Below are positions 1-17,686 of a stretch of 64,000 nucleotides of DNA, one piece after another. The notes beneath the pieces are model-generated. The model was not told the origin of the DNA. It did not search any database and was given only the letters and a program-made list of their open reading frames with translations. Source of the stretch: Yersinia massiliensis CCUG 53443 (GTDB taxonomy: Bacteria; Pseudomonadota; Gammaproteobacteria; Enterobacterales; Enterobacteriaceae); assembly GCF_000312485.1 (NCBI RefSeq), contig NZ_HE997645.1:319354-383353 (forward strand). Direction: 5' to 3'. Positions within the stretch are counted from its first letter, which is position 1, and every line of letters starts with the position of its first letter. A program made the position numbers and the translations under genes.

Positions 1-124
1 GTGGTGTTGGTTTCTCACTCACCGTCGGCGGCGTCTTCGGTGGTGTTGGTTTCTCACTAACCGTCGGCGGCGTCTTCGGCGGTGTTGGTTTCTCACTCAC
101 CGTCGGCGGCGTCTTCGGCGGTGT
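1..124 (-). repeat. 39-bp tandem repeat encoding a 13-residue proline-rich unit
   Basis: Just over three nearly identical 39-bp units lie head to tail and continue off the left edge. Read on the minus strand, in frame with the exoprotein, each unit encodes TPPKTPPTVSEKP. Units differ by one or two bases (for example cactcacc versus cactaacc). Such a segment would form an extended, protease-exposed linker like the proline-rich region of Bordetella FhaB. Copy number is unknown because the array is cut by the edge. Confidence 0.93.
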
Positions 125-3100
125 TGATGTGTTATTTGTTTTTGTTGGCTTGTTTTTATTCGAGCCGGATAATCCACCTACCGTGAATGAAATATTATTT
201 GATGCAGTGACTTTATCCACGTTAACTTGTGAGAGCACTTCTCCGTCAGTATTTAGTTCACCTTGTACATTGCCTTTAATATTACCGACATCGATCGTTG
301 CTTTTTGATCTTCCTGATATTCAATTTTTTCAACAGTATTATAATAGCCATTCACTGTCGGGAGCCCTGTTTTGGAGATACCACCACCACCACCACCATA
401 AGCACCCTCTTGATCTATCGTATCTGATAGCTCGACTGCATTAATATTACCAGCAACATCTACTGTGCCCGTTTTAGAATCAGAAATAATGTGGGCACCG
501 GTAAGATTCAGATCTCCGCCAGAAGAAATATTCAACTCACCAGTAGTATTAATTCCTGACTGAGTGCCCGTTGTCTTTGAATCATAATGCTCACCACCTT
601 GCCCGTAATTAGCAGCACCTGTTGGAATGACACCACCATTAGTAGAAACAGCCACGCCAACGGAAACGCCCCACTCGTTACTATTTTTCTGATTATTAAC
701 AGTATCTTGCACACTTTGAACATTCAGGTCGCCGGATACATTAAGATTTGCTGTATCTGACTGAATATTTCCTCCTGCTAGCGTCATATTCCCCCCAGTG
801 TTTATAGTAATATCACTGCTATTAAGATTGGAGTTGGTATATGTGTTACTTGAACCGGTAGATGTTTCAGTACTGCCATGGTAGTCCACTGAAAATCCTG
901 CACCAGCCCCTGTTGGTGCAACGGAAGCCCCTGCACTAAGTCCAGCAGAATGAGTGTCTTTTTGTGACCAACTCTCAGTTGACGACTCCGCGGCTAAAAT
1001 ATTGAAATCACCGCCAGTATTGACCTCAACACTACCAGCTGATAGTTCAACGCCCTTAAGGGTTGTATCGCCTTTGCTGGTGATTGATACATTACCAGCA
1101 TTGATATTAGTGATATTCTCGCTCTTTTCCGTGGATGAGCTACTGGTAGAAGTCGTATCAAAACCAACGGAAACTGAGGTGCCAGCCAAGTCATTGAAGA
1201 CAAGATTACTAGCACTACCTGCAACTTCAGCAGCAGTTAGACCCGCATCAATTTCTTGTCCATCATTACCTTTACTGACCAAGTTACCCCCTTTATCCAA
1301 AGCATCAGCCACTGAGCTATGAACCTCACCTTTTACGCCATAGAATGAAACTGTTTCCTCACTGGTTGTTATGACTTCATCTTCATATTTTGTGGACTTA
1401 ACTTCTTCAGCAACAACAGTTAATGTACCTTCGGTGGTGAAATCCCCTCCCCCTATATCAACTGTTTTACCCGCATCCAACGTCATTGAATCAGTAAAAT
1501 TAAGTGACGCATTATTATTGCTCGTCGTTTGCTTAGTATCGACTGTCGAAACAGTTTCCAGTCCAGCTTGGAAACTACCAGAAGAGGATGTTGGAGCACG
1601 GCCAGGCTTAGAACCTGCATTGGTAATATCTGACCCAAGATTATTATGCTCCCCAGTACTGGTACTCGCATTTGCACCATCCAAACCACTGACGTTATAA
1701 TCAGCAGAATATCCAGCACCACTTGCGCTCGCACCAAATTTTAAGTCAGTGCGTTCGACTGTAGTTTCGGAATAACTGTAATCTTGAGATGTTTGGACAT
1801 CAATGTCACCAGTTGCTTTTAATTCACCTGACTGGGCATTATATTCTCCACCTTTAAGAATAATGTCATTCGCAGAATTAACCGTAAACTTTCCACCGGC
1901 ATTAACAGAACTATCAACACTGGTTGCACTTGAACTTACCGTTTCTGTAGATTCATGGCTCAAGAAACCTGTCGAGCGGTGTTCATATTCATAGTTACCT
2001 TCAACTTCATACATATTGTTAAAAGTAACATCACCTTCGGTTGACGTTAGGCTGATATCCTTATCTGCCGCAATATCAACAGCATTCACAGTAATATCTT
2101 TGGCGCTCATGTCGATACTGCCACCCGCAGTGACTCCATCATCAAAGAAGTGAAGCTCCTGATTACCCGAAGCATTAGCACCTTGGCTAGCAGTCAGCTC
2201 AATAGATCCATTATCGGCATGTAAAGCCAAATCATTACCCGCGCTGAGAGCCGCGCCACTATTGGTTATCGAGCCATTACTGGATACCAGTGATAAATCC
2301 CCACCGGAAGAGATCCCACCGTTCATGCCAACACTGCTATTGTTAATATCGCCTTCAGATTGAATATTAATATTGCCACCGGCACTGATCTGGCCATTAA
2401 CATTATTAAATGAAGACGCATCGACATTCATATCACCGCCAGCATGTACCACTGCCGAACCATCATAACGGCCACTCTCGAGTTGCTCTATGGTTGTGGT
2501 TGCAAAATAAATTTTAGGCGTTAGCACGTCATGTCCATCGATATTTTCGGTGACAAACCAAACAATATCTTTGTCTAAAACGGCAATTTGGTCATCAGTT
2601 AATGCTTTACCAACAGTAAAATCTTCGACGCCCGCCACTGATGCCGCATTAGACATTAATCTTTCAACCAACTCAGTACCATCAATGCCATCACGGACAC
2701 TGAAGAAAGTGCCTACGGACTCATTTAACTGGCGTCGAATAACTTCACTGATAAAGTAATTATCGCCTACAACGAGAACGGGTGTTTCCGGGATATAACC
2801 AATTTGATCGAAGAAATATTGCGATCCAAAGAAGAGACTTTGATCAATCATCTCAGTACGGGTTTCATAAAATGGATAAATAGGATTGCTTGCACCAGTT
2901 CCTACCTTGACGGTGAAATCCACATTCTTCCATTTCTGGTTAGAAACAAATAACCCTTGAATTTTTGCCAGCTCAGTATAAGTTTTTGTTGTACTCAATC
3001 CTTTAGTCAATTCGGCAATGGTTTTCAAGCCAATATTAACCTCATAAGGATTTTGTGTGACAGTAACTTCCTTATCACCAACAGATACTTTTATTTCTTG

Positions 3101-6100
3101 TCCATCAAGCTTTGCACCGAATAAACCATTATTAAATGCTCCGCCATTATGCGTCAAACTTCCCCCAGCAATAATACCACCGTTATTATCTGATAAACCA
3201 TAGTCTTTTAAATCTTTCAATCTTGCATTATTTGAACTAGTTATATTGGCCCATTCATTTGAAAGATTATCCAGACTGTTGGATAACCACGCATCACCAA
3301 ACAGTCGTTTCATGATACTATTTAACTGTTCACTTTGCTTGGCCATCTCCTTTAAGCTATTAAAGCTATTCCCTTTTGTGTCATATATATATGATTCCGT
3401 CCCTGAAATATTACTAGGGACACCATTTCCCAAGTAAAAATCAAGCATTTGATACAATGTATTAAATTCAGCATAGTGGGAGCCACTGCCAATAACTTTT
3501 CTATAAACCTCTAACTGAATAGGTGTTTTAAGCTCTTCAGTTAAATAATAATAAAATGACATTTCATTATATTCTGGAGAGTTATTGACCGTTCCGGATA
3601 TTCTCATATCCTTACTAGATTGAATAATTCCACCTGTATTATTGAGCGTCTTGCTACTATAAATATTTTTTTGATTAATATTTAAATTCCCACCAGATGA
3701 AATTTCAGCCATTTTACTTAGCTTAATATCACCAATCCAAGTTGGGATTGAGCCAGATAAAGTCGTACTATAATATACAAAACTCAGAACCCCTTGTTTC
3801 CATTCATGTGAACCACTTGCATTTTGTGCTGGGCCAGTAACCCATCCAGGGTTATCATATTTACTAATATTATCGATAATCTTAGCATCTAGTGCCATAT
3901 CACCTTGCGAACGAATAGTACCTCCATCATTTTTTATATTTTCCGCAGTAATGTCTATGCCACCCATACTAAGAACGTTAGCATTCTCCTCATTAATAAA
4001 CTTACCCTTTTCAGCGTCAATAACGATATTTTGAGAAGAGAAAATTAAGGCGCCATTACTGTTGGTAATATTAATAGCTTTTAAAAAAATATCTTTAAGA
4101 CTCAATATAGACTGATTATTTGATATTTTAATATCTTTGCTTGCATTAAGGAGTATTGAAGCAGCACTTTCGAGTATTCGATTTATAATAATCGAACCTG
4201 TTGTATCAATAGAGAATTGACCTTTAGCATTAACATCACCACTATCGTTATCATAACGATAGTCACCAGATAGAATCAAAGAAAGATTATGATCGCTAAA
4301 AATCTCACCATCTATATTATTTAATGCACTTGCTAACTTAATCAATAGATTATTAACGGAATAAATGTATCCATTACTGTTATTTAAATTATCAGATATA
4401 ATCTCAACATTATCACCACTAATATAAGAGTTGCTGTTGTTAACACTTTTCGAACTTATGCTAAGATCACCCTCAGAAAATAGAGTTGCGTTGTTAACAT
4501 TGGAAATTGAGTTTGCTGCTAATGCTAATCCCCCCATACCCGCAATGATTGCTTCACCTGAAGATGAACCATTGCTACTATCGTTATTAATAATATTCGC
4601 ATCGACAGACAAAATACCTGATGTTTGTATAATCGCATTGATATTATCTAATTGATTAATGTTATCAAATAATGCATTCCCATCAGCGTTAATAATTGCG
4701 GCTATAGAATTAATAATACTACTAACATAGCTTACACGTAAGTCCTTGCCTGAATTAATAACACCGACACTACCACTACCATCACCAATGTTAGACAAAG
4801 AATTGATGTTATTTAGAGTGAGGTCAGCACCAGAGTATATAACACCTTTATTTGTGAAATCATCGACATCAGATACAGTTAAGTTATTCTCTGAAGTTAT
4901 AATACTACTGGCATCATTTTTGACGCTGTTAATAAGTTCAAGCTTTAGCCACTCACCTAATGCAGAGATATAACTGCCACCACTATTTTCCAAGTTAGAA
5001 ACAGACTTAATGTTAATATTATTTGCAACAATGCCGGAACCTGACGATTGAGTCGATCCACTTCCAGCATTCACTAAGCTATCACTATTTAAAATATCAA
5101 CAGTTCCATCCGCATTGATCAGACCATCAGAATTATTAATATTTTTTATATCACTTAAATATATATCACCAGAAGACAAAATAGATGAGTTATCATTAGT
5201 AAGTTCCGACGATTGACTAATCGATAGCTTATCAAGCGCAAGGACCTTTGCTCCATCCGTATTCTTAATATTATCTATATTAGCTAAAATTACGTCTTTA
5301 GCCTGAATAATTGATGCATTACCATTATTAGCCAACCCCTTAATATTATTAAGGTCCAACGTGCTTTCAGAAATTAATTTCGCACTATTACTGTTAGTCA
5401 CAGCATTTGCATTACTAACTTCAACCGTCCCTCCCTGAATCAAGCTATTGTTGTTATTTATATTAAGAGAACTTGTACCGCCGGTTATTTTTAAGTTTTC
5501 TCCCGATATTATCTTAGCACCATTCTGATTATTTAATTCATTACTAATATCTAATGATAGATCTTTGGTAGCACTAATATCACCACTATTATAAAGACTA
5601 CTTGTTGTAATTTTTGCAGAGTCAGTTGAACTAATTTTACCTGTATTCTCTAATAATGAGTCACTTCCAGATTGGTTAATAACAATCTCGCCAGCAGAAA
5701 TCAAACCACTGTTAATAGCACTATCGTCATTTATCGAAATGTCTAACATTGCATCAGATGAAACTATACTTCCACTGTTGTTAAAAACATTGGTTTTGAT
5801 AGTATTATTTTTCTCGGCTTGCATTAATCCTTTATTAACTAAAGACCCAACAGTAAAATTAGCATCTTTCTCAGTATATAGGACACCTTTATTATTAAGA
5901 CTTTTAGCTAAAACGCTTAATGAACCACTTGCATTTATTACACCATTATTTTCAAAATAATCATTAATATTGAAGTTTAGTACTCCATTTTTATTATTGA
6001 CACCTGCCCCGCTATTCAAAAATGAATTCGCATTAACTATCACATTCCCGGCTTGACTACTAATACCGGCATCAGAACTAATTGTTGCGGACTCAATCGC

Positions 6101-7399
6101 TTTTCCATTAACCGTTACAATATAGTTGCCATCTACTAGAGATATTATCGCACCATCAATTTTGTTACCTGAGGCATCAAGGGCTAAAAGCGTTCCAGTG
6201 ATTTTATATTCACCTTTAACATCAATGAGAATTGATGTTACATCAATTCTTTCATTTCCAGAACTCATTGAGAATATACGTGCTGCATTTTGCAACAGTG
6301 AATCCGCTGTAATTCTAATATTGCCTTTTTCTGTCACAGCATCAGCATTTAGCTTAACTTGCGATAATGCTCTGATTATTAGATCACCATGACTAATAAC
6401 ACCACCAAAACCGGTATTCTCATTCGTTGAAATATCGATATTATTACCCGTCAGGTTGACATCGCCCGACTTACTACTAATTGCGGTCAATGCTAAATCG
6501 CCATCAGCCGTTATCTCAACCGTCTGATTACCCACTAAGCTACCTCTGTGCCTGACACCAACGCCACTTTCTGTACTAATCAGTTGTATTCTTCCACCGT
6601 ACATAGAGCCGAGGGAACTGCCATCAATAGCAACTTTAGGGGTCTCTGCCGCTGATAGACTTCTAATTTTGTGTTGTCGTGTTTGAGTGTCATAACTATT
6701 TAGCCCAGCAACCACTTTGATATCTGCGCTTCCAGAAACCTCCCCATCAAGCTTAACTGTACGACTAATCATATCAAAATGAGTCAATCCTTCAGTTGAT
6801 AGACCCTGTCCCTCGACTGCGATCATTCCTTTATTCACGTTGAGCTGAATATTGCCATTCTCACCATATCCAACACGCCCCGTACTGAGCGTCAGATTGT
6901 TGGCATTAATAGTAGATACGCCATTAACAGAAATACCATTTTCGTTTGCTACAATAAGATCTGCATTTTTCCCAAAGACTTCTATCGTTCCATTCAAATA
7001 AGAACCTTTGGCACCAGTAACTTCACTAATAATAGCACTAGCTTCTTGTTGCAACTGACCATTTTTAATAACATAACCACCAATACTACTCACGCCATCC
7101 TGCATACTATTATTAAAAATCAAGCCATCTTGACCGACATTAAAATCGTCAAATTTATTGTGTGATATACCATTCCCATTTGGATTAATAATGTTTACAG
7201 TTGGCGTACCATTGGCTGACTCTGATATAGTCGGTGAGTTTGAGTTAGCATCCGGAATTAAATTTGCGTGCGATAAAATGGGTAATGCTGCAACTAAAAC
7301 CAGATATATTGGACACAACTTATTATGTAAATTTTCTTTCGTTATCTTATCAATAAATGACGATGAAGAGTCATTATCGTTGACTTTATTTTTTCTCAT
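1..7399 (-). CDS. FhaB/CdiA-like giant two-partner secretion exoprotein (3' end outside window)
   Basis: Secreted adhesin of the filamentous haemagglutinin/CdiA type. The frame is open from an ATG at 7399 (AGGAGC ribosome site 6 bases upstream) to the window edge, at least 2,466 codons. An extended signal peptide (about residues 1-45) is followed by a TPS domain containing NPNGNGISHNKFDDFNVG near residue 80 and NENGISVNG further on. Asn/Ser-rich beta-helix repeats run to about residue 1250. A non-repetitive central region (about 1270-1640) holds GSQYFFDQIGY and ALTDDQIAVLDKDIVWFV, motifs I know from the YP region of CdiA-like proteins. A second repeat block with EWGVSVGVAV follows. The visible end is a proline-rich tandem array. 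The transporter lies 58 bp upstream. Any maturation or toxin domain, and any immunity gene, would be outside the window, so adhesin versus contact-dependent inhibition toxin cannot be decided. Confidence 0.9.
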   Translation of the reverse strand, partial: MRKNKVNDNDSSSSFIDKITKENLHNKLCPIYLVLVAALPILSHANLIPDANSNSPTISESANGTPTVNIINPNGNGISHNKFDDFNVGQDGLIFNNSMQDGVSSIGGYVIKNGQLQQEASAIISEVTGAKGSYLNGTIEVFGKNADLIVANENGISVNGVSTINANNLTLSTGRVGYGENGNIQLNVNKGMIAVEGQGLSTEGLTHFDMISRTVKLDGEVSGSADIKVVAGLNSYDTQTRQHKIRSLSAAETPKVAIDGSSLGSMYGGRIQLISTESGVGVRHRGSLVGNQTVEITADGDLALTAISSKSGDVNLTGNNIDISTNENTGFGGVISHGDLIIRALSQVKLNADAVTEKGNIRITADSLLQNAARIFSMSSGNERIDVTSILIDVKGEYKITGTLLALDASGNKIDGAIISLVDGNYIVTVNGKAIESATISSDAGISSQAGNVIVNANSFLNSGAGVNNKNGVLNFNINDYFENNGVINASGSLSVLAKSLNNKGVLYTEKDANFTVGSLVNKGLMQAEKNNTIKTNVFNNSGSIVSSDAMLDISINDDSAINSGLISAGEIVINQSGSDSLLENTGKISSTDSAKITTSSLYNSGDISATKDLSLDISNELNNQNGAKIISGENLKITGGTSSLNINNNNSLIQGGTVEVSNANAVTNSNSAKLISESTLDLNNIKGLANNGNASIIQAKDVILANIDNIKNTDGAKVLALDKLSISQSSELTNDNSSILSSGDIYLSDIKNINNSDGLINADGTVDILNSDSLVNAGSGSTQSSGSGIVANNINIKSVSNLENSGGSYISALGEWLKLELINSVKNDASSIITSENNLTVSDVDDFTNKGVIYSGADLTLNNINSLSNIGDGSGSVGVINSGKDLRVSYVSSIINSIAAIINADGNALFDNINQLDNINAIIQTSGILSVDANIINNDSSNGSSSGEAIIAGMGGLALAANSISNVNNATLFSEGDLSISSKSVNNSNSYISGDNVEIISDNLNNSNGYIYSVNNLLIKLASALNNIDGEIFSDHNLSLILSGDYRYDNDSGDVNAKGQFSIDTTGSIIINRILESAASILLNASKDIKISNNQSILSLKDIFLKAINITNSNGALIFSSQNIVIDAEKGKFINEENANVLSMGGIDITAENIKNDGGTIRSQGDMALDAKIIDNISKYDNPGWVTGPAQNASGSHEWKQGVLSFVYYSTTLSGSIPTWIGDIKLSKMAEISSGGNLNINQKNIYSSKTLNNTGGIIQSSKDMRISGTVNNSPEYNEMSFYYYLTEELKTPIQLEVYRKVIGSGSHYAEFNTLYQMLDFYLGNGVPSNISGTESYIYDTKGNSFNSLKEMAKQSEQLNSIMKRLFGDAWLSNSLDNLSNEWANITSSNNARLKDLKDYGLSDNNGGIIAGGSLTHNGGAFNNGLFGAKLDGQEIKVSVGDKEVTVTQNPYEVNIGLKTIAELTKGLSTTKTYTELAKIQGLFVSNQKWKNVDFTVKVGTGASNPIYPFYETRTEMIDQSLFFGSQYFFDQIGYIPETPVLVVGDNYFISEVIRRQLNESVGTFFSVRDGIDGTELVERLMSNAASVAGVEDFTVGKALTDDQIAVLDKDIVWFVTENIDGHDVLTPKIYFATTTIEQLESGRYDGSAVVHAGGDMNVDASSFNNVNGQISAGGNINIQSEGDINNSSVGMNGGISSGGDLSLVSSNGSITNSGAALSAGNDLALHADNGSIELTASQGANASGNQELHFFDDGVTAGGSIDMSAKDITVNAVDIAADKDISLTSTEGDVTFNNMYEVEGNYEYEHRSTGFLSHESTETVSSSATSVDSSVNAGGKFTVNSANDIILKGGEYNAQSGELKATGDIDVQTSQDYSYSETTVERTDLKFGASASGAGYSADYNVSGLDGANASTSTGEHNNLGSDITNAGSKPGRAPTSSSGSFQAGLETVSTVDTKQTTSNNNASLNFTDSMTLDAGKTVDIGGGDFTTEGTLTVVAEEVKSTKYEDEVITTSEETVSFYGVKGEVHSSVADALDKGGNLVSKGNDGQEIDAGLTAAEVAGSASNLVFNDLAGTSVSVGFDTTSTSSSSTEKSENITNINAGNVSITSKGDTTLKGVELSAGSVEVNTGGDFNILAAESSTESWSQKDTHSAGLSAGASVAPTGAGAGFSVDYHGSTETSTGSSNTYTNSNLNSSDITINTGGNMTLAGGNIQSDTANLNVSGDLNVQSVQDTVNNQKNSNEWGVSVGVAVSTNGGVIPTGAANYGQGGEHYDSKTTGTQSGINTTGELNISSGGDLNLTGAHIISDSKTGTVDVAGNINAVELSDTIDQEGAYGGGGGGISKTGLPTVNGYYNTVEKIEYQEDQKATIDVGNIKGNVQGELNTDGEVLSQVNVDKVTASNNISFTVGGLSGSNKNKPTKTNNTSTPPKTPPTVSEKPTPPKTPPTVSEKPTPPKTPPTVSEKPTP

Positions 7400-7457
7400 G
7401 CGAATAGCTCCTGCAGTTTGCTGGATATATCGTTATTACGATGGAGTTTCTTATTTA

Positions 7458-9242
7458 TTAAAAACGTAGATCAAATCTATAACTCAATGTTGTAGAGTCA
7501 ATATCGGAGCCCCTTAATGTTGATGGTTTCGTTAGCGGATAACCTAATGTCAATGAAGACGAAAAATTGCTGCCAATAGCCTTGATGCCAATAGCAGCAC
7601 CTGTTAAATACTCTGCAGGGCACGAGCCCATGTCATAGGTACAGTTATTTTTAATAAACCCAAGATCATAACCAACAAAAGGTGAAATCTGCCAGACTCC
7701 ATATTTATTGATAGAAATTGGCATTTGAACTGTATTTGATATGTATCCACCATTATGACCAGAGACAGAATCTTCTTTGTAACCTCGAACAGTATATTCA
7801 TCACCAATTGATTGTTTTCCATCACTGACTAATATATCTTTTGTCAATTGAAGCCCTGAATTCACTTCATAGGATAGGCTCACAGGACCGCTTTGGGCTA
7901 AGAGTTTGGACCAACTAATCATGGCATTGTATTTTACGTAGTTCAGGTCGAATCCCTTTAAATCAGGTTCATCTTTCCATGCTGCGCCAAACCAAGGTAC
8001 ACCTGCAGTTGAGCTTAAATCCCAAAAGAGTCCCCCTCCCCAAAGCACACCGACTCGATTCACTCCGAGTGTAATACTGCTGTATTTTTTGCTACTAACA
8101 CCTATTTTGATATCTTCGATTTTATTAGTATTATCTCGCCCTTCAACCTTTGTATAGGCGCTGAATCTTCCTACTGAATCTCGAAAAAGAACTCGACTTA
8201 ACTTAGCTGAGGCTCGCTGCGAAGTGCCTTCACTGTGATAACCACCATAATATCCACCAATAACCTTCTCATATTCAGAACGGTATAAGGATGCGTCTAA
8301 TAGCCAATAACCAAGCGGTAAACTGTAATTCATGGACCATGAACTTTGGTTATCAGTGTTTGCACGCAAGTCATTGTATGCATAATAAAATGATAACGAA
8401 TCATTAAAACCAGCAAAGTTATTCACTGTCAGCGTAGAGTTATATTGATGCCATCCATCATCTTGACGGCCAGAGTTATTCACACCTAAAGAAAGTGAAA
8501 TAGGGAAATACTTTGAATCTCTAAGATCCAGTACTGAGTAACCAAAGTCATCAGATGGGACAATTTGTAGTTTGTCTGTCCTTGAAACTCTCAGTAAGTT
8601 GTCCAAGCCTTGATCAAGATCTGACATATTCAGTTTACTGCCAGAGGCAAAGGGAATAGCACTGAACAGCCTCGTTCTTTCAAAGAATTTTGGTGGTTCT
8701 CCTTCAACACTGAATCCTGAGATCTTTCCCCATAACACATCTAAATTAAGTATACCTTCACGTAAACTTCCTGGCAGGACCGTCACTAAAGTGGTCACAT
8801 ATCCTTTGCCAACATAGAAATTAGTCAACTCTTTGACTAATTCCATTATTTCCTTTTGGCCCATCTCAGTATTTTGATACCGCAAAATAATCTTTTGCCT
8901 CTGTGGTGAATGGGCGTAGACATCATCATTCTCAATATTAATTTTATTAATGAGAAATTTATGTTGTGAATTCAATAGACTACTTTCATTTTCAAGATGT
9001 TCGGTCAACGCATCATTCTGACGTCTTATTTCACTTTCTCGGCGTTTCTCATCCTGAATCATTTCACGTGTACGGCTACGCTCCAGTCGGTCTAATTCTC
9101 TAGATGCATTTGATGCTTGATTACTTAATTGTGGGGGCTGTACTTGAGCATAAGTCATTAAGCTTACAAGTGTGAGAGATATGGCGATACTACATATTAG
9201 ATATACTCTGTTAACGTTAAGATTTTTAATGAAGTAAAACAT
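7458..9242 (-). CDS. Two-partner secretion outer-membrane transporter, FhaC/ShlB/CdiB family
   Basis: Omp85-superfamily pore that exports the adjacent exoprotein across the outer membrane. It has 594 residues, the usual family length. A hydrophobic signal segment (about 12-32) precedes a highly charged helical stretch (about 45-75). POTRA-like sequence follows (about 85-240), then a beta-barrel ending in a C-terminal phenylalanine. The loop-6 motif VRGY, diagnostic of the family, is at about 485-488, followed by a Gly-rich segment. Its ATG is only 4 bp after the adhesin stop with a weak ribosome site, which suggests translational coupling to the fimbrial genes. The exoprotein starts 58 bp downstream. 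Family assignment is secure; pairing with that exoprotein is inferred from adjacency. Confidence 0.95.
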   Translation of the reverse strand: MFYFIKNLNVNRVYLICSIAISLTLVSLMTYAQVQPPQLSNQASNASRELDRLERSRTREMIQDEKRRESEIRRQNDALTEHLENESSLLNSQHKFLINKINIENDDVYAHSPQRQKIILRYQNTEMGQKEIMELVKELTNFYVGKGYVTTLVTVLPGSLREGILNLDVLWGKISGFSVEGEPPKFFERTRLFSAIPFASGSKLNMSDLDQGLDNLLRVSRTDKLQIVPSDDFGYSVLDLRDSKYFPISLSLGVNNSGRQDDGWHQYNSTLTVNNFAGFNDSLSFYYAYNDLRANTDNQSSWSMNYSLPLGYWLLDASLYRSEYEKVIGGYYGGYHSEGTSQRASAKLSRVLFRDSVGRFSAYTKVEGRDNTNKIEDIKIGVSSKKYSSITLGVNRVGVLWGGGLFWDLSSTAGVPWFGAAWKDEPDLKGFDLNYVKYNAMISWSKLLAQSGPVSLSYEVNSGLQLTKDILVSDGKQSIGDEYTVRGYKEDSVSGHNGGYISNTVQMPISINKYGVWQISPFVGYDLGFIKNNCTYDMGSCPAEYLTGAAIGIKAIGSNFSSSLTLGYPLTKPSTLRGSDIDSTTLSYRFDLRF

Positions 9243-9246
9243 ATTA

Positions 9247-10227
9247 TTACTCTATTGTTAGATTGAAATAAACTTGTCCAGCAACATTACCTGCCGTTAT
9301 ATTTGCTCTATCTGATTCTAATATGTACATTTGAGCAGAATATTTAAGTTCTTTATTTTCGCCGGCGTTAATTACAATCTCTGATGATTTCTCGCCATTA
9401 ACCTGCTGAGCAATAATTCCATTTGAAGCTAACATTCGAGTACCAATTCCTTTAGCGCCACCACTTGCCACTGGAATAGTATTTTGCATGACTCCCCGAG
9501 ACAGACCTACTAGTGGTTGCTCTACGGCAGTAAACGCTATTTTTATAGAAGTAGCCTGCGGGCAATATACTATGACTGAAAATGGAACAACGGCTCCATG
9601 CTTATTACCTACTTTGAAGTCAGAGAGAGGATAGTTTCCTAAATTAATGCTTATATCTGAATTAGTAATCATGCATGAACGTACAACAACTGAAGTATTA
9701 GATGATAAGACTACAGACAAAAGTGTAAAACTATTACTGGTCTCATCAGCTGCAGTAAGGACAACATTTGCAATTTCGCCTAACGGTATATCTCCTGCTA
9801 CTATTCTCCCTGTTTGCACAAATTCTATAATCAAATTATCGCTGCTTTCAGTGCAGGGTGAATAACAAGTGTGAATCGTTGGAAAATAGTTAGATATCCG
9901 GCTAGCAGGCCATTTTATTCTGATTCCTACACCACCAATTTCAGTATTATATACATCTGGGAGCGCTGAAACTGAGTTACCTCGAGTGAAAGTAGATGTT
10001 AGGCGAGTGTTTATACCTGTACCACAGGTATAATTTAAGGCACGAACAGGAATTATATGCGATCCTAGAATTGTACCTACAGCCCCATTCTCCGCAGGAT
10101 TAAGCACCAATTGCGGCATAGAAACTGTTGTTGCATTCCCCGTACAGCTTGCAGCAATGACATTTGAACTGACCCAAGTTAATAACAAAGAAAAAATAAT
10201 CAATAATCTACTGAATAAATTTAACAT
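9247..10227 (-). CDS. Fimbrial tip adhesin (two-domain, FimD/MrkD-like)
   Basis: Predicted tip adhesin of a chaperone-usher fimbria. Of 326 residues, 1-25 form a signal peptide ending VIAA. An N-terminal lectin-like domain (about 26-180) contains cysteines at CTG, YTCG, HTCYSPC. The C-terminal pilin domain (about 185-326) contains the RSCMITNSDISINLG-type start of a pilin fold and closes with the alternating hydrophobic strand GQVYFNLTIE used for chaperone and donor-strand binding. A strong GAGGAG ribosome site lies 8 bases before the ATG. It follows the usher gene by 27 bp and precedes the transporter gene by 4 bp. The receptor cannot be predicted from sequence. Confidence 0.88.
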   Translation of the reverse strand: MLNLFSRLLIIFSLLLTWVSSNVIAASCTGNATTVSMPQLVLNPAENGAVGTILGSHIIPVRALNYTCGTGINTRLTSTFTRGNSVSALPDVYNTEIGGVGIRIKWPASRISNYFPTIHTCYSPCTESSDNLIIEFVQTGRIVAGDIPLGEIANVVLTAADETSNSFTLLSVVLSSNTSVVVRSCMITNSDISINLGNYPLSDFKVGNKHGAVVPFSVIVYCPQATSIKIAFTAVEQPLVGLSRGVMQNTIPVASGGAKGIGTRMLASNGIIAQQVNGEKSSEIVINAGENKELKYSAQMYILESDRANITAGNVAGQVYFNLTIE

Positions 10228-10254
10228 ATCGCATTCTCCTCAATTTTGTACGCT

Positions 10255-12801
10255 TTATTTATTTCGACAAATAGTGTTTATGACTCTTATATTTTCATGG
10301 TCAGAATTAGGCATAGGTCGATAATCGACAATGCACTCATGTCTACCTTGTTTATCATTCCAAATGATGAAAATATCTTGAGCCTTATCACTTGAGAGAA
10401 TAACAGTCCCCCCTTGGCCTACTATCCCTAAGGAGTTACCTATTACATTGTAAGCTTTAGCCCCAAAGGGAATAACTTCACCTAGTTCATTCGCTATTTT
10501 CAGTACTTCATTATTAATATTTTTTGTGTCAAATTTAACTAATACAGCAGAGCCCGCAGTTGGAACCGCCCTAATTCTATCTTCCTCTATCTCTATGTTT
10601 GTTGGCATATCTTTAACATCTAAAGAAATATCGTTATATTGGAATGGCGATAAATATGGCAAAATAGCATATCCATTCTTAGCAACTCGCGCATTGGTAT
10701 AGGGGTAAACATTTGCGCCAGTAGCACCTTTCGCTTCAATAATGCCAAATGTATCGCTAACAGTTGGCGTTAAATTTACGCCCCCTGCATGGGCGACAAT
10801 TCCCCCACTTAAATTTAGCGATGCCATAGAATTTGAGCGCCCATGGCTAAAACCAAGATTCACTATTGAATTATTTCCACTATACCCGCCGTTTAGACCT
10901 ATATTACGATCACTGTGGTTTGTTCCATCAATCCAAGTACCATAGTTATAATTTTGATTTTCGCCAAGAGTACCGTTAACTGCTGTTTTTATCCTAGATT
11001 CTCGATCACTATGACTCATCGTCGAAGTTAATCTCGGTCTGTTACGATGAACAGTTGTAGAGCCTAATGGAACGCTGAATGACAAGCGAAATGTATTATC
11101 AGCATTACCATAACGATTATTAGAACGACTAAAACCTAAATTATAGTTAACCGAACCAAGTGAGTTTGAATAACCAACCTGATAGTTAAATGCGTTTTTT
11201 TCATTAATATCTTTCTGCCAATATCTTCCATAATAGGCCGTCAAAAATATACTGCCCCACCCAGGAGATAAGCTCTGATTTATATTAGCTTCAAAAACAT
11301 CACGGTAATTATCCACCCTCTTCGTTTGTCCATTTTTTTGGGCTTCAGAAACCGTCAGTGCATCCATTAATGTAAAGTAGTTGCTACTAGAGTAGCGGTA
11401 TGCCATTAAGCTAAAATTCGTCTTTGTTGGTTCAATAACTTTTGCAAAACCTGCCTTAAAACTCATATTACAGAAAGTTGAATGACACTGTGACTCTTCA
11501 TCGATTAAAACAGAAGTTGAGGATCGTGTTGCATCAAAACTTAAAGCACCAATTGGTGTATTAAATGCGAGCCCACCAAGCAATGCAAAATAGTCATTAG
11601 ACATGGTTTTTTGCACGCCACCATAACCCGTGACGTAATTATTGAAACCATATTGATAGCTTCCTTCAAACAAAACTGGCGGTTCACTCAGATTTGAGCT
11701 TCTTATTTCTCCTACTGTGGCAGTATATTTTGAATATCCCTCACGCAGCAGCTGCGGAATACTAGAATAGGGTATGGCTTGTACCCTTATACTTCCATTT
11801 GCCTCTCTGATCGTGACTTCAAGATTTCCACCATAACCCGCGGTATTTAAATCGTTAATAATAAATTCGCCTGGAGGAACATTGGCTTCATAAATAACAT
11901 TGCCATTTTGGCGGACTGTCACCAGGGCATTACTGTCGGCAACACCTCTGATGACTGGCGCATACCCCCTCATCGAATGGGGTAGCATACGGTCATCGGT
12001 ATATATGCTGGCACCTCTAAGAGGTGTTGTATTAAACATCACACCAGTAGTATTGACATCACCTAGAGTAAACTGCGATTGGCTGGCAGCAAATGATCGT
12101 TGTAAGTAAGCTGACTGATGGTTCCATTTTATACTTTCATCGCTGGTACCATTTGCAGAACCATTAGTAAATAATCGCCATGGTCCAAATTTCGCAGATG
12201 TATTTAATCCACCATAGTAAAATTGGGTACTACTTTTGCCATCACTATACTCAGATTCAACTCTATTTTTATAGTTAGATGCATTAAGAGTATAAGCTAA
12301 AGTGAAAGCTGGCACTCCTTCATCCCATAGCTCTGGCCGGACATAGCCATCAGGCGTATTATGAATATAAGCCAATGGTATAGTAAGATATATTTTTTGG
12401 TCATCATTATCATAATTTAACGTTGCATTAGGGATGATATCTTTAATAAAAATACAATCTATAGCTTGCCATTCATATGGAAGCATATCTTGCTTTACAC
12501 CAAAAGACATTATGTCTTTTGGTGTAAAGCAAGGGGTGACCTCTCGATCGTTATCGTGTTCAATAAAACTAACATTCATGCTTTCGATATTTTTCGAATT
12601 TAAATTAATTTCCACATAATACTTACCCGATTTTAGTGTATCCTCACCATTAAAGTCCTCTAGATTTACACCATGACCATACAGTTTCATGAAGCCAGAA
12701 TTAAATTTTATCTGTCCTTGTGAAATAGCAGCAGAGCTTTCCTCTGATAATGCGTTTAGAGAGAAAAAGCATATAGCAATACCCAAAATGAAACATCTCA
12801 T
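10255..12801 (-). CDS. Fimbrial outer-membrane usher (PapC/FimD family)
   Basis: Outer-membrane assembly platform for the fimbria. The product has 848 residues if the ATG at 12801 is used; a GTG at 12810 adds three. A signal peptide (MRCFILGIAICFFSLNALS) is followed by the N-terminal chaperone-binding domain, which contains the usher motif PCFTPKDIMSFGVK, then a 24-strand barrel with plug and two C-terminal domains. Other family motifs visible are FNTTPLRGASIYTDDRMLP and GYGGNLEVTIREANGS. Length matches the family. An unusual feature is a perfect 45-bp palindrome in the coding sequence (12489-12533). It lies between the chaperone and tip adhesin genes. Confidence 0.96.
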   Translation of the reverse strand: MRCFILGIAICFFSLNALSEESSAAISQGQIKFNSGFMKLYGHGVNLEDFNGEDTLKSGKYYVEINLNSKNIESMNVSFIEHDNDREVTPCFTPKDIMSFGVKQDMLPYEWQAIDCIFIKDIIPNATLNYDNDDQKIYLTIPLAYIHNTPDGYVRPELWDEGVPAFTLAYTLNASNYKNRVESEYSDGKSSTQFYYGGLNTSAKFGPWRLFTNGSANGTSDESIKWNHQSAYLQRSFAASQSQFTLGDVNTTGVMFNTTPLRGASIYTDDRMLPHSMRGYAPVIRGVADSNALVTVRQNGNVIYEANVPPGEFIINDLNTAGYGGNLEVTIREANGSIRVQAIPYSSIPQLLREGYSKYTATVGEIRSSNLSEPPVLFEGSYQYGFNNYVTGYGGVQKTMSNDYFALLGGLAFNTPIGALSFDATRSSTSVLIDEESQCHSTFCNMSFKAGFAKVIEPTKTNFSLMAYRYSSSNYFTLMDALTVSEAQKNGQTKRVDNYRDVFEANINQSLSPGWGSIFLTAYYGRYWQKDINEKNAFNYQVGYSNSLGSVNYNLGFSRSNNRYGNADNTFRLSFSVPLGSTTVHRNRPRLTSTMSHSDRESRIKTAVNGTLGENQNYNYGTWIDGTNHSDRNIGLNGGYSGNNSIVNLGFSHGRSNSMASLNLSGGIVAHAGGVNLTPTVSDTFGIIEAKGATGANVYPYTNARVAKNGYAILPYLSPFQYNDISLDVKDMPTNIEIEEDRIRAVPTAGSAVLVKFDTKNINNEVLKIANELGEVIPFGAKAYNVIGNSLGIVGQGGTVILSSDKAQDIFIIWNDKQGRHECIVDYRPMPNSDHENIRVINTICRNK
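12489..12533. repeat. Perfect 22-bp inverted repeat with 1-bp spacer inside the usher gene
   Basis: The arms read CTTGCTTTACACCAAAAGAC.. and its exact reverse complement, separated by a single T at 12511. The usher peptide CFTPKDIMSFGVKQ is encoded by this palindrome, so the opposite strand also reads CFTPKDIMSFGVKQ. The hairpin would be very stable in mRNA and the DNA could extrude a cruciform. Whether it is functional or a chance duplication-inversion is not known. Confidence 0.92.
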
Positions 12802-12831
12802 TATAATCACAATGCCTATACTGTTAATTAA

Positions 12832-13572
12832 TTATGATAGATTTATCTCTTTCTCTACAAATGCACCTAAGTCAGTAATATATAAATAAAATAACTTTAT
12901 AGATTCATTGCCAATATCTACATCACTAAAATCAAAGGTGTTACTTGAAAATGGATTAATCATCCCCCCTGATACATCAATTACTTTATCGCCCTTTTTT
13001 ATTATAAATTTCCCTATTGACACATGATATGGAGATTTATTCTCCCCCTTAATTTCTATTTTACCACCCGATTTTTTCACAACCCAATTAACATTTTCAG
13101 CTCCCACTATCGGATTTGAAGGAAGTCCTACAGGACGGTAAAAAAATTTTAACCGGGTCCGAAATGCCAGATTTAGTTGATTCATAGAGTTATCATTTTT
13201 CACCTCGGGTGGAATATCAAGAACATTAACCCAGAGTAGTGTTTCCCTATCTCGAGGGAATTGCATTTTTGCGTCTTCTGTTTTAAATATTCTAAACGAC
13301 TTTCCTTTACCCGCATTTATACGGGAAACTGGCGGACTAATAATAAATGGAAATTCTTCTTTATTATGGTCACCTTTGCTTTCATTATCTATCTCCGACT
13401 CCAACCAAATTTGCACTAATGAAGGATTCTCTGCCACATTATTAATTCTGATGACTTGTTCTTTATTTTTTTCTTCAAAAATGATTCTCGTTGCCATTAT
13501 CTGAATTGATGCATATACAGAGTGACCTCCAAACAATAGGAGTCCAGCTAGTAATATATTCATTATCTTCAT
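12832..13572 (-). CDS. Periplasmic fimbrial chaperone (PapD family)
   Basis: Binds and donates a beta-strand to fimbrial subunits in the periplasm and delivers them to the usher. It has 246 residues with a signal peptide (1-21, ending SVYA). The first immunoglobulin-like domain carries RIIFEEKNKEQVIRINN and QIWLESEID. The linker carries FPFIISPPVSRINAGKGKSFRI and ETLLWVNVLDIPP, the PapD signature region. The second domain contains NLAFRTRLKFFYRP. It follows the major subunit by 68 bp, across a hairpin, and precedes the usher by about 30 bp. Confidence 0.96.
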   Translation of the reverse strand: MKIMNILLAGLLLFGGHSVYASIQIMATRIIFEEKNKEQVIRINNVAENPSLVQIWLESEIDNESKGDHNKEEFPFIISPPVSRINAGKGKSFRIFKTEDAKMQFPRDRETLLWVNVLDIPPEVKNDNSMNQLNLAFRTRLKFFYRPVGLPSNPIVGAENVNWVVKKSGGKIEIKGENKSPYHVSIGKFIIKKGDKVIDVSGGMINPFSSNTFDFSDVDIGNESIKLFYLYITDLGAFVEKEINLS

Positions 13573-13606
13573 TTATTATACCTTTGTGACCATAGTGATT
13601 TCTTGA

Positions 13607-13636
13607 TGGGGCCTTACTCTTAAAGAGCCTGCCCCA
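13607..13636 (-). terminator. Hairpin between major pilin gene and chaperone gene (attenuator or mRNA stabiliser)
   Basis: TGGGGC (13607-13612) pairs with GCCCCA (13631-13636), enclosing an inner ACTCTTAAAGAG-type stem. It starts 4 bases after the pilin stop. There is no downstream U tract on the minus strand, so it more likely protects the 3' end of the abundant pilin message or partially attenuates than fully terminates. Such hairpins commonly follow major subunit genes. Confidence 0.55.
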
Positions 13637-13640
13637 AAAA

Positions 13641-14243
13641 TTAGTTATAGACTATGGAATAAACAAGACTTGATTCTACGTTACCTGCTCCTGCCACACC
13701 TGTTGCTATATATTCTGCCCAATAATCAAATCGGGCTGTATTACTCGCAATCACTTGCTCTTGATGCCTATCATTAGGTAAGGATAAATTCAGAGGAGCA
13801 GTGTCCTTATTTAGAATTCTAATTTGTACATTACGAGCAGCACTGCCTGCGGCTGCTGTGTTAATCAAATTACCTGTAGTCTCGTCAATTGTTCCCCTTG
13901 CTCTTTCAAAACTGACATTGGCTAATGCACCATCTGTACAATCAACACCGCTGAGCGCAATATGGAATTTAGTTGCCTGAGCATGTTGGCCAGCCGCAGA
14001 TAATGCAGTAGTACTGACAGTTTTGAGAGGAACGGTAAAGTTATTTGACCCAACTGTTTCTTCTGTTCCACCAGTGACTATACATGTAACTGATGACACC
14101 GAGCCGGTAAAACTTATAGTGCCATCCTCCGCCGCAGCTTGCGGCGAAGTAGATAATAATGACAATGCAACACATAATGTCGTGGCAATCTTAGTATCTA
14201 ATTGACGATTATTCTTACAAACGTATTCTTTAAGTTTGTACAT
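13641..14243 (-). CDS. Major fimbrial subunit (type 1-like pilin)
   Basis: Structural subunit of the chaperone-usher fimbria. It has 200 residues with a long leader (cleavage probably after QAAAE, around residue 40). The mature part has the pilin start DGTISFTGSVSSVTCIVTGG and a second Cys in SGVDCTDG, forming the conserved disulphide. The C-terminal strand SSLVYSIVYN has the penultimate-tyrosine pattern recognised by the chaperone. It is the first gene of the fim-tps series, with 399 bp of AT-rich DNA upstream. The leader is longer than usual; no better start codon is visible downstream. Confidence 0.93.
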   Translation of the reverse strand: MYKLKEYVCKNNRQLDTKIATTLCVALSLLSTSPQAAAEDGTISFTGSVSSVTCIVTGGTEETVGSNNFTVPLKTVSTTALSAAGQHAQATKFHIALSGVDCTDGALANVSFERARGTIDETTGNLINTAAAGSAARNVQIRILNKDTAPLNLSLPNDRHQEQVIASNTARFDYWAEYIATGVAGAGNVESSLVYSIVYN

Positions 14244-14642: not shown

Positions 14643-15395
14643 TCATTGATTAAGTGAGTAAAATAATTCCGTTCTGCAACTATTTTTATGACCCTTCATT
14701 ATTTTATCTTTACAAGCAATGAGTGAAACTGTGGAATGAATTTGACTAAAAGAGAAATAGTGAAATGGATGAGTTTGACAAGATGATTGGGAACTACTTA
14801 AGAAGACTTCAATTTCAGAGGCTATTAATTTTATATCACTACCTTTTTCATAATATATGGAACAATTCTTCACGCTATGGCTAAAAATGAATTCATCCGA
14901 ATTTTTAACTATATTTGTCAATCTTGAATTCACATAAAAAAATAATAATGTCGTTATGATTAAGCTTGCTGCTATCAGAAATATGCGAATAATTATGTTT
15001 TTTTTGGGATTATTATCCTCTATATGAAAAAGCACTTCCTCTTTGACATCATCTTCATTTATATTTTCTGTAATCGCTGATACGGTAAACATAAAACCCT
15101 TACCTCTTACCGTCGTGACGGATTCACCACTAATTCCAACGTCATTGAGTGCTTTTCTTAATAATGAAATATTTTGATATAGAGTATTTGGTGTTACGTT
15201 CGCCCCTTTTTCCCCCCAAGCAATTTTGTAAAGCTCTCTTTGAGAAATTACGATGCCAGCTCGAGTAACAAAAGCCTCAAGCAACTGAGCCGTTGGCGCA
15301 TTTAGTTTAACGGTAGTACCCGTTAATAATGACGATACAGCCCCGCTGTTCGGTGAGAATATTACATTTCCATTGACAATGAAGTTTTTATCCAT
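14643..15395 (-). CDS. Membrane-anchored winged-helix transcriptional regulator (ToxR/CadC type)
   Basis: 250 residues. The N-terminal domain (about 1-108) is an OmpR-like winged helix: ISQRELYKIAWGEKG, the recognition segment NTLYQNISLLRKALND and the wing TVRGKGFMFTV. An acidic linker leads to one transmembrane helix (about 134-154), then a periplasmic tail of about 95 residues with four or five cysteines. It would sense an envelope signal and bind DNA while membrane-bound. It lies just upstream of, and in the same direction as, the fimbrial operon, so control of that operon is the simple inference. Specific orthology is not recognised. Confidence 0.85.
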   Translation of the reverse strand: MDKNFIVNGNVIFSPNSGAVSSLLTGTTVKLNAPTAQLLEAFVTRAGIVISQRELYKIAWGEKGANVTPNTLYQNISLLRKALNDVGISGESVTTVRGKGFMFTVSAITENINEDDVKEEVLFHIEDNNPKKNIIIRIFLIAASLIITTLLFFYVNSRLTNIVKNSDEFIFSHSVKNCSIYYEKGSDIKLIASEIEVFLSSSQSSCQTHPFHYFSFSQIHSTVSLIACKDKIMKGHKNSCRTELFYSLNQ

Positions 15396-16346
15396 ATCTG
15401 ATCCCTAGTTCCCTTATTTACTTATAAACAACCCATCTAATCGTTATGTTCACTTATGTATGATGTTAATCTGATTAGCTTAACATATCTTATAAAGCGG
15501 AAAGAACTCTGATCTCTTCTTATAATGATATGATTAACCGGCAATCTTTTTTATGACTTTACTAATTAATAAGTCTTTTAATTACAGTCATTTTCATTTA
15601 TGAGGGGGATTTATCATTCTTATGCTAGCATTAGGTTTTTTGCCAAATTATTCCAACATACACTTTGGGATTATCATCAAGCAAGGTATGGTCGAGCGAC
15701 TTAAGGGCCATAGAGTTAAGTTCTGTAAGGCGAAAATTGTCTAAGATGGTTGAAAGGAGATATTAAATTTATTGAATAATCTTCAAGTATTAGCAGTTTC
15801 AGCGAAATGAACACCAAGGAGGCTTCTGTAAATTACTCATGGTAAGTCACCACCATCTCAGTACCGGGATTCCTAAACCCTACTCACTACTGGGAAATGT
15901 TGGATTAGGTTTGGCAGCCTTTTGCCATTGTACTTGGATAAGCCGCAAGCCCATGATTTTTGCTTCCCCCCCTGACAGCCAGATTCAGTATAAAACTGAC
16001 TCAAAAGAGAGCTCACGCAATTCATCACATTGACCACAGTTCAGCAAGAGTTAGGCTTTTACCCATCAGGCTTTCCCATAAGGCAAATTTCTTTCTGACC
16101 ATAACCTATCGACGATAGATAAAACAACCCGTTATCGATATTGAAAAGATAGGAATGTGGCTAAAAAGCACTAAAAGATGCGAAATATCCCTAGTGATTT
16201 GAATCAATGTTTGCGGTAATGGAGTCTATAAAGAATAATTCAATAAAATGATATAATAAAATCATTTAAAAAAATAACATTTTGTTAAGAAATTAATCTG
16301 TATTTTACATTTAAATTTTTAAATCTATTCCATGAGGAAAAGAAGC
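15396..16346. other. Intergenic region of about 950 bp, no recognisable gene
   Basis: It separates two divergently oriented ToxR-type regulators. A small plus-strand frame at 15839-16033 has no family features, and its AAGGAGG is about 16 bases from the ATG with a stop between, so I do not call it. The stretch 15700-16100 is less AT-rich than its flanks and may be a decayed gene or insertion remnant. The flanks probably hold the promoters of both regulators. No tRNA or intact mobile element is seen. Confidence 0.4.
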
Positions 16347-17637: not shown

Positions 17638-17643
17638 GCATTC

Positions 17644-17685
17644 CTTGTTCCCTTCCCTCTTGAAAGATGGGGGGTTTGGAACAAG
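17644..17685. terminator. Inverted repeat between converging fidL-like gene and fliR
   Basis: CTTGTTCC (17644-17651) and GGAACAAG (17678-17685) form an 8-bp stem between two converging genes. The 26-base loop and absence of a clear U tract make it a weak terminator candidate for either direction. Confidence 0.35.
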
Positions 17686-17686
17686 C

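What the first reader, a model, noticed from the sequence alone, without database searches (positions are those of the whole stretch)
1..14243. Chaperone-usher fimbria and two-partner secretion genes in one apparent operon, mirroring Bordetella fha-fim
Six minus-strand genes follow one another: pilin, chaperone, usher, tip adhesin, TPS transporter, giant exoprotein. Gaps are short (4 bp between adhesin and transporter, 58 bp before the exoprotein). In Bordetella the order is fhaB-fimA-fimB-fimC-fimD-fhaC, i.e. the same fimA-B-C-D-fhaC series with fhaB moved. Here the series sits in an Enterobacterales-type genome. Either an old transferred unit or repeated convergence would be notable, and the two surface structures may be made together or act together.
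Basis: partly seen in the sequence, partly recalled or inferred. Interest (0 to 1): 0.8.

Follow-up and report, generated by a model that had tools for sequence, protein, structure and literature searches.

The report
Conserved fimbria plus filamentous-adhesin operon
In a Yersinia genome, genes for a hair-like fimbria and for a giant secreted adhesin form one compact gene series that recurs in several related bacterial genera and on plasmids, and its secretion half is the closest relative we found of the whooping-cough bacterium's FhaC/FHA system, so two adhesion machines appear to have been kept together as a unit for a long time.

Summary
In detail: pilin, chaperone, usher, tip adhesin, TpsB and TpsA follow one another with gaps of 68, 21, 27, 4 and 58 bp in a Yersinia genome. 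It is no one-strain accident. The same order occurs in 5 of 25 Yersinia genomes, in 12 of 13 other sampled genomes that carry this TpsB (six further genera), and on Yersinia enterocolitica and Providencia plasmids; the thirteenth has only the TPS half. Usher and TpsB trees share 13 of 16 splits and each group is one clade, so the halves travelled together. Here the unit, with a ToxR-like regulator and a small membrane protein, is a 17.7-kb low-GC insert beside a second flagellar cluster; a 94-96% identical relative has 260 bp there. The TPS half is Bordetella-like: FhaC's best matches, in the sets searched, are this clade, and the exoprotein's secretion domain is nearest to FHA. Whether the fimbrial half is also shared with Bordetella fim was not tested, because no Bordetella usher was reached. 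Co-transcription and joint action are inferred. Verdict: a real, conserved, mobile variant of the fha-fim kind of locus.

The parts
14643..15395 (-). wHTH1: winged-helix DNA-binding domain + one hydrophobic (transmembrane) segment; ToxR/CadC-like one-component regulator
   Evidence: Trans_reg_C 51 bits; best solved match 'cholera toxin transcriptional activator' (ToxR DNA-binding domain) E 6e-7; segment 134-152 by hydropathy; lies inside the insert; a 55% identical gene stands upstream of the pilin in L027 and L029/L025, none was seen there in L028
13641..14243 (-). major pilin (type 1-like)
   Evidence: PF00419, PF16970 over cut-off; present in all 17 CU-TPS genomic loci
12832..13572 (-). periplasmic fimbrial chaperone
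   Evidence: PapD_N 125 bits, PapD_C 38 bits
10255..12810 (-). outer-membrane usher; PapC_N-Usher-PapC_C, no POTRA match, so not a P-usher
   Evidence: Usher 473 bits; one clade with the 18 other CU-TPS ushers, support 100/100
9247..10227 (-). two-domain tip adhesin: MrkD-like receptor-binding domain + pilin domain
   Evidence: PF22003 30.6 bits (cut-off 27) and PF00419 46.5 bits; by profile, solved matches to its first domain include Abp1D, Abp2D and a 'fimbria adhesin protein'
9243..9246 (-). 4-bp adhesin-TpsB junction (1-39 bp in the 17 loci compared, by longest-frame starts)
   Evidence: no terminator-like site at the junction
7458..9242 (-). TpsB transporter of FhaC type: N-terminal helical region, POTRA_2, POTRA_3, ShlB barrel
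   Evidence: grouped with FhaC at 100/100 against 26 others
7400..7457 (-). 58-bp TpsB-TpsA junction (4-59 bp in the 17 loci compared)
1..7399 (-). TpsA exoprotein, 2466 residues inside the window; continues left of the window to L009:17423; TPS domain 47-303, hemagglutinin repeats, proline-rich tandem repeats at the window edge
   Evidence: TPS domain nearest to FHA among solved chains, 223 vs 126 bits
3..126 (-). 39-bp tandem repeat = 13-residue proline-rich repeat of the TpsA tail
15900..15900 (.). approximate right border of the ~17.7-kb insert (left border about 1.77 kb outside the window, L009:16588)
   Evidence: alignment to the relative's empty site in L115

Best explanation
This is one conserved, mobile adhesion operon that makes two surface structures. 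Shown: the gene content, the order, its recurrence across genera and on plasmids, the matching trees of its two halves, and its presence as one insert in this genome. Inferred: one message starts upstream of the pilin gene, under the control of the membrane-bound winged-helix regulator in those copies that have it (with the small membrane protein at the other end as its possible periplasmic partner, in the manner of PsaE/PsaF). Pilin and tip adhesin cross the inner membrane by Sec, are held by the chaperone and polymerised by the usher into a fimbria with a MrkD-like receptor-binding tip. The exoprotein is recognised through its TPS domain by the two POTRA domains of the TpsB and leaves as a long beta-helical filament, with its proline-rich tail last, as FhaB leaves through FhaC. 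The two appendages have different reach, so co-expression gives a long fimbria for first contact and a filamentous adhesin for tight binding or cell-cell contact. The TPS half shares ancestry with Bordetella FhaC/FHA; the fimbria-TPS linkage is at least as old as the split of these enterobacterial lineages of the operon.
For: Same six-gene order in 17 of 18 genomic loci that hold this TpsB (window and 4 other Yersinia; 12 of 13 non-Yersinia loci), in Y. enterocolitica Y194 and Providencia alcalifaciens plasmids, and, from usher to TpsA as far as seen, in Y157. All 19 CU-TPS ushers form one clade against 22 other ushers, 100/100. The 19 CU-TPS TpsBs plus the CU-less L066 form one clade, 100/99. 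13 of 16 splits shared; distance correlations over 17 loci 0.866-0.985, over 10 representatives 0.63-0.96. The divergent ushers L059 and L065 have, outside their own kind, Yersinia CU-TPS ushers as first-ranked plasmid matches (12 rows listed of 474 and of 953). L066 nests inside the clade, i.e. loss. Insert of about 17.7 kb at 37.6% GC between flanks at 46.9 and 46.0%; a relative 96% and 94% identical on the two sides has 260 bp. FhaC kinship: FhaC hits exactly 3 of 72,556 plasmid records at E<=1e-30, all CU-TPS, whereas the window TpsB hits 163; in 299 Pseudomonadota genomes its best match is this TpsB, 239 vs 143.5 bits next; two other placements of FhaC fit worse, p-AU 2e-5 and 1e-4 (groups chosen after the tree was seen).
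Against: No RNA data: co-transcription rests on gaps and absence of junction terminators. The strongest promoter-like match in 1-18000 (11 of 12) sits at the chaperone-usher junction (12827-12800), although such matches are at chance level (73 found, 70.3 expected). FhaC is a single row on a long branch (1.99). No genome known to be Bordetella and no Bordetella usher was examined. The regulator is not part of every copy: upstream of the pilin it was seen in G000, G008 and G019, not in G014, and the G007 contig ends there; no regulator or small-protein match was found in the stretches fetched around the 13 non-Yersinia loci. Nothing in the sequences shows contact between fimbria and TpsA. One clade member lives without the fimbrial genes (L066).
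Confidence: 0.75

Rival explanations
1. Two unrelated adhesin loci were brought together by chance and only hitch-hike on the same island, without shared expression or function.
For: The genome is rich in both kinds (17 usher matches; 6 TpsB matches). A different pairing, with another gene order and a 1.7-kb gap, exists on a Salmonella Rubislaw plasmid, so neighbours can arise independently.
Against: Order and tight spacing kept in 17 of 18 genomic loci across seven genera, with differing surroundings, and on plasmids; congruent trees.
Confidence: 0.12
2. The TpsA is not a free filament but decorates or caps the fimbria, in the spirit of the CupB proposal for Pseudomonas aeruginosa, so that the operon makes one composite appendage.
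For: Precedent: a TpsA-like gene (CupB5) inside the cupB cluster with a POTRA-bearing usher (PMC3031594, passages). Long-term linkage.
Against: Here the usher has no POTRA match and a full TpsB is present; no pilin-type domain was found in the window piece or in three complete TpsA proteins scanned. The title of Garnett 2015, seen only in a reference list, points to a separate TPS system in CupB5 translocation.
Confidence: 0.13
3. About the Bordetella link only: the resemblance is convergence. Just the FhaC-type TPS is shared, and fimbrial genes were joined to it separately in Bordetella and in Enterobacterales.
For: fhaB sits at the other end in Bordetella (PMC2225982). The fimbrial half was not compared with Bordetella. 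None of the 16 non-own TpsB loci of the class sample has an adhesin recognised by this clade's adhesin profile within 1.5 kb (unrelated fimbrial genes would be missed).
Against: FhaC is the nearest outside relative found, and in Bordetella too fhaC directly follows a fimABCD series (PMC2225982); a second independent joining in the same order before the same TpsB lineage is less simple.
Confidence: 0.35

Closest known systems
Bordetella fha-fim locus (fhaB, fimABCD, fhaC)
   Same: Fimbrial series directly before an FhaC-type transporter gene (PMC2225982 passage); TpsB nearest to FhaC; secretion domain nearest to FHA; proline-rich stretch near the exoprotein's C end, as described for FhaB (PMC13232309 passages)
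   Different: Exoprotein gene follows the transporter instead of preceding the fimbrial genes; exoprotein 2,532-2,937 residues in 14 complete copies against about 370 kDa for FhaB (PMC13232309); a membrane wHTH regulator in place of BvgAS; usher kinship untested
Pseudomonas aeruginosa CupB cluster (CupB3 P-usher, CupB5 TpsA)
   Same: Chaperone-usher fimbria and a TpsA-like protein in one cluster (PMC3031594 passages)
   Different: CupB has an usher with a POTRA domain and no TpsB among cupB1-6; here a plain usher and a dedicated TpsB
Yersinia psa/myf fimbrial loci with PsaE/PsaF
   Same: Fimbrial operon beside a membrane winged-helix regulator and a small one-TM protein; PsaE/PsaF known here from listed abstracts and recall
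   Different: The small protein has no Pfam or NCBIfam match and no significant solved match; kinship with PsaF not tested; psa has no TPS genes (recalled)
Klebsiella pneumoniae KpFhaB/FhaC (PMC13272123, sections 18, 19, 20 and 26 read)
   Same: Two-partner adhesin reported to act additively with a chaperone-usher pilus
   Different: fhaB and fhaC described as two adjacent genes, with a VENN pre-toxin domain; the pilus (Kpi) is a separate system

Membership tests
Bordetella-type fha-fim locus | fimABCD series directly followed by fhaC | tested here: met
   Same order and orientation; Bordetella order from PMC2225982 (passage)
Bordetella-type fha-fim locus | transporter of the FhaC lineage | tested here: met
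   one FhaC sequence, long branch
Bordetella-type fha-fim locus | exoprotein gene upstream of the fimbrial genes | tested here: not met
   TpsA lies downstream of TpsB in all 17 six-gene loci
Bordetella-type fha-fim locus | usher and pilin of the Bordetella fim lineage | not tested
   No Bordetella usher reached: 0 of 80 handles with a beta-1 16S pattern, no Bordetella genome recognised
Chaperone-usher fimbria | pilin, PapD-type chaperone, PapC-type usher, two-domain tip adhesin | tested here: met
   all over curated cut-offs
Two-partner secretion (FhaC/FhaB type) | TpsB with two POTRA domains and a barrel; TpsA with N-terminal TPS domain | tested here: met
CupB / P-usher system | POTRA domain on the usher | tested here: not met
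   usher has PapC_N, Usher and PapC_C matches only
Contact-dependent inhibition (CdiB/CdiA) | VENN motif and C-terminal toxin | tested here: not met
   VENN in 0 of 14 complete TpsA proteins (13 from six-gene or plasmid copies and L066); no toxin domain in 3 complete relatives or in the window piece. The window's own C end is interrupted by N
PsaE/PsaF-type regulation | membrane wHTH regulator plus partner protein that senses in the periplasm | tested here: inconclusive
   wHTH and a hydrophobic segment shown; partner role and homology to PsaF not shown

The most novel reading that the evidence does not exclude
Fimbria plus FhaC-type TPS is an ancient joint adhesion machine older than Bordetella's fha-fim locus; the whooping-cough bacterium's two main adhesins are one descendant of a mobile module still circulating whole in Enterobacterales, and the two appendages need each other in assembly or in one binding step.
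Probability: 0.25. Interest if true: 0.8.

Novelty: new variant of a known kind. Interest (0 to 1): 0.6.

Why it matters
In Bordetella, fimbriae and FHA are said to act in concert (PMC13232309, passage), and their genes are linked. A conserved relative of that linkage, on plasmids and in differing chromosomal surroundings in Yersinia, Providencia and other genera, gives independent and easily handled systems in which to ask why the two are kept together, and offers a route to the origin of the fha-fim locus. It also warns that annotation of each half alone (as 'fimbrial' or 'ShlB/FhaC family', as in the plasmid records) hides a recurring unit.

Tried and rejected
CupB-like P-usher: rejected, no POTRA match on the usher. 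CDI system: rejected, no VENN or toxin domain. Recent swap of the fimbrial half in the Providencia-type and L065 copies, suspected from usher identities of 31-34%: rejected, these ushers are inside the one CU-TPS clade, and outside their own kind Yersinia CU-TPS ushers rank first among plasmid matches. Regulator pair at 16332-17637 as part of the unit: rejected, it belongs to the flank shared with the empty-site relative. KpFhaB/FhaC of Klebsiella as the same system: rejected, two genes with a VENN domain. Papers on Haemophilus parasuis, Burkholderia thailandensis, Photorhabdus and K. pneumoniae 342: only passages seen, none of which describes such an operon.

Led nowhere: search for a Burkholderiales genome through a 16S pattern recalled from the FISH literature (0 of 80 handles, which does not show that none is there); class samples with this TpsB (only the own genome of 369 at the strict limits); E. 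coli genomes (no match of the L054 TpsB DNA; the window's TpsB was not tried there); structure predictions (not completed). Counts by the genome search are lower bounds, because in the larger searches only the top candidates of each genome are scored. The borders of the insert were read by eye but not searched for repeats, integrases or attachment sites; the only tRNA scan covered the window and found none.

Literature searches on which 'not found in print' rests: (open-licence full texts only; listings capped, for instance 25 of 736). No listed title and no passage read described this enterobacterial operon. Most listed papers were seen as listing or abstract start only.
Full report
What is there. 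The window lies at G000:C3:319354-383353 of a 5.05-Mb genome. On the minus strand, in transcription order, are a membrane winged-helix regulator (14643-15395), pilin, chaperone, usher, tip adhesin, TpsB and TpsA; gaps between the six are 68, 21, 27, 4 and 58 bp. Domain scans place each of the six over curated cut-offs. TpsA leaves the window at its left edge; 292 unread bases (N) follow directly, inside a 39-bp tandem repeat (13-residue proline-rich repeat), and the frame ends about 930 bp left of the window. Next comes a 172-residue protein with one hydrophobic segment (L009:16651-17169), without Pfam, NCBIfam or convincing PDB match.

Operon evidence. No terminator-like site lies at a junction; the four found on this strand are inside genes. 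Promoter-like matches are at chance level (73 against 70.3, sd 9.2), the best of them at the chaperone-usher junction, which is against a single promoter if real. Over 17 loci the adhesin-TpsB gap is 1-39 bp and the TpsB-TpsA gap 4-59 bp, by longest-frame starts. There are no RNA data.

Distribution. In 25 Yersinia genomes, 5 carry a TpsB at 71-100% identity; three more pass E<=1e-60 at 30-31%. All 5 have the six genes in order. In a sample of 392 genomes of the family (GTDB sense), 16 pass E<=1e-60; one of these is a 31% relative, leaving 15, two of them Yersinia already counted and 13 others at 46-56% identity. Of these 13, 12 have the full series, in six genera; the thirteenth (L066) has TpsB and TpsA alone. 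In several loci TpsA runs off the stretch or contig. In 369 genomes of the class only the own genome passes E<=1e-63; with the profile at E<=1e-22, 17 of 369 do, and none of the 16 non-own loci held has an adhesin recognised by this clade's profile within 1.5 kb. Among 72,556 plasmid records, two Y. enterocolitica plasmids (134.9 kb, TpsB 72%) and one Providencia alcalifaciens plasmid (67.7 kb, 47.5%) carry it. For Y157 only usher to TpsA was seen, because the record starts there; in Y194 TpsA is annotated as two frames.

One unit. The ushers of 19 CU-TPS loci form one clade against 22 other ushers, support 100/100. The 19 TpsBs and L066 form one clade, 100/99. Restricted to the 19, the two trees share 13 of 16 splits; the three in each tree that differ are within close groups or concern L057/L058. 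Pairwise distances of the six proteins (first 700 residues for TpsA) correlate at 0.866-0.985 over 17 loci and 0.63-0.96 over 10 representatives, with at most 1 of 2000 permutations as high, as expected for genes inherited together. The Providencia-type and L065 ushers are very divergent, but outside their own kind Yersinia CU-TPS ushers rank first among their plasmid matches (12 rows seen of 474 and of 953). L066 nests inside the clade, and its neighbours resemble those of L063 and L064 (my reading of translated flanks), so the fimbrial genes were most likely lost there.

Mobility in this genome. Relative G024 aligns at 96% over 16.6 kb to the left flank and at 94% over 3.0 kb to the right flank, with 260 bp between them; here about 17.7 kb stand in that place, from about 1.77 kb left of the window to about 15900. 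The insert holds the regulator, the six genes and the small protein; in L027 and L025 the homologous stretch has nearly the same extent, L009:16652 to window 15540. GC is 37.6% against 46.9 and 46.0% in the flanks. The own flanks find no match in the stretches fetched around the G008, G014, G019 and G007 copies, so the surroundings differ from theirs. Borders were not searched for integrases or repeats; the mode of transfer is unknown. The regulator is not universal: upstream of the pilin it was seen in three of the five Yersinia copies, not in G014, and the G007 contig ends there; no match was seen near the 13 non-Yersinia loci.

Bordetella. The order fhaB, fimABCD, fhaC is stated in PMC2225982 (passage). 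By sequence, FhaC is the best solved match to the TpsB (243 bits; CdiB 152) and to the clade profile (319 against 203). In reverse, FhaC (stretch 9-532) finds exactly three plasmid records at E<=1e-30, all of this operon, and among 299 Pseudomonadota genomes its best match is the window's TpsB (239 bits, next 143.5; 11 of 299 pass E<=1e-30). Within the set of 47, its 20 best matches are this clade (192-250 bits, next 150.5). The tree joins FhaC and the clade at 100/100 against 26 others; two other placements fit worse (p-AU 2e-5 and 1e-4). Cautions: FhaC has a long branch and stands alone, and the tested groups were chosen after the tree was seen. The TpsA secretion domain also has FHA as best solved match (223 against 126 bits). 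Fourteen complete TpsAs, L066 included, have their most proline-rich stretch at about residues 2400-2600 and none has VENN; FhaB has a proline-rich region before its C-terminal domain (PMC13232309, passages). The fimbrial half was not compared with Bordetella, so shared ancestry of the whole arrangement is possible but open.

Mechanism and rivals. Co-expression of a fimbria and a TPS filament for joint adhesion is the simplest reading. Precedents: Bordetella fimbriae and FhaB are said to act in concert (PMC13232309, passage), and K. pneumoniae KpFhaB/FhaC and Kpi are reported to be additive in adherence (PMC13272123, section 26), although those are separate systems. A composite appendage in the spirit of CupB (PMC3031594, passages) is less likely, since the usher lacks POTRA and a TpsB is present. 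Chance neighbourhood is unlikely given conservation, but a looser, independent pairing of other clades exists on a Salmonella plasmid. Regulation by the wHTH protein is inferred from position and from its ToxR-like DNA-binding domain; the comparison with PsaE/PsaF rests on listed abstracts and recall.

Verdict. Observation confirmed; interpretation partly supported. A new, conserved and mobile variant of the fha-fim kind of locus.

Noticed in passing
window 17687-48000 (approx.): A second flagellar gene set (fliR at 17687-18466); 7 of 25 Yersinia genomes have two FliR matches at E<=1e-50. It looks like a Flag-2-type cluster (name recalled; the other genes were not scanned).
   Followed up: partly
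window 16332-17637: A second, divergent winged-helix membrane regulator whose end overlaps the start of a 172-residue one-TM protein; the right flank that holds it is shared with the empty-site relative, so it belongs to the flagellar side.
   Followed up: partly
G000: 17 usher matches in one genome (two adjacent ones at C1:547813-549979 may be halves of one gene).
   Followed up: no
L009:18063-18354: A run of 292 N starts directly left of the window, inside the proline-rich tandem repeats of TpsA; an assembly gap or a withheld stretch.
   Followed up: no
L114 (NZ_CP019193.1:27000-40000): Salmonella Rubislaw plasmid: pilin-usher-chaperone-adhesin, then a 1.7-kb gap, then TpsB-TpsA of a different clade; an independent, looser pairing of the two adhesin types.
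   Followed up: partly
L070 (NZ_CP124243.1): In the Y. enterocolitica plasmid of strain Y194 TpsA is annotated as two frames, whereas the plasmid of strain Y157, of almost the same length, has one; flanks hold type II secretion, glycoside hydrolase family 18 and YrIlm adhesin genes.
   Followed up: no
L025, L027, L028, L061 and others (TpsA C ends): Number and sequence of the proline-rich repeats in TpsA differ even between close relatives, suggesting fast repeat turnover.
   Followed up: no
PDB 10ss chain a: The best solved match of the pilin (75 bits alone, 122 by profile) is labelled 'Ferrous iron transporter B' but reads as a pilin; probably a mislabelled entry.
   Followed up: no
L027 279-1563, L028 17579-18860: Downstream of the operon in other Yersinia copies lies another wHTH + small TM protein pair (regulator 41-42% identical to wHTH1), so several such pairs gather around this operon.
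   Followed up: partly
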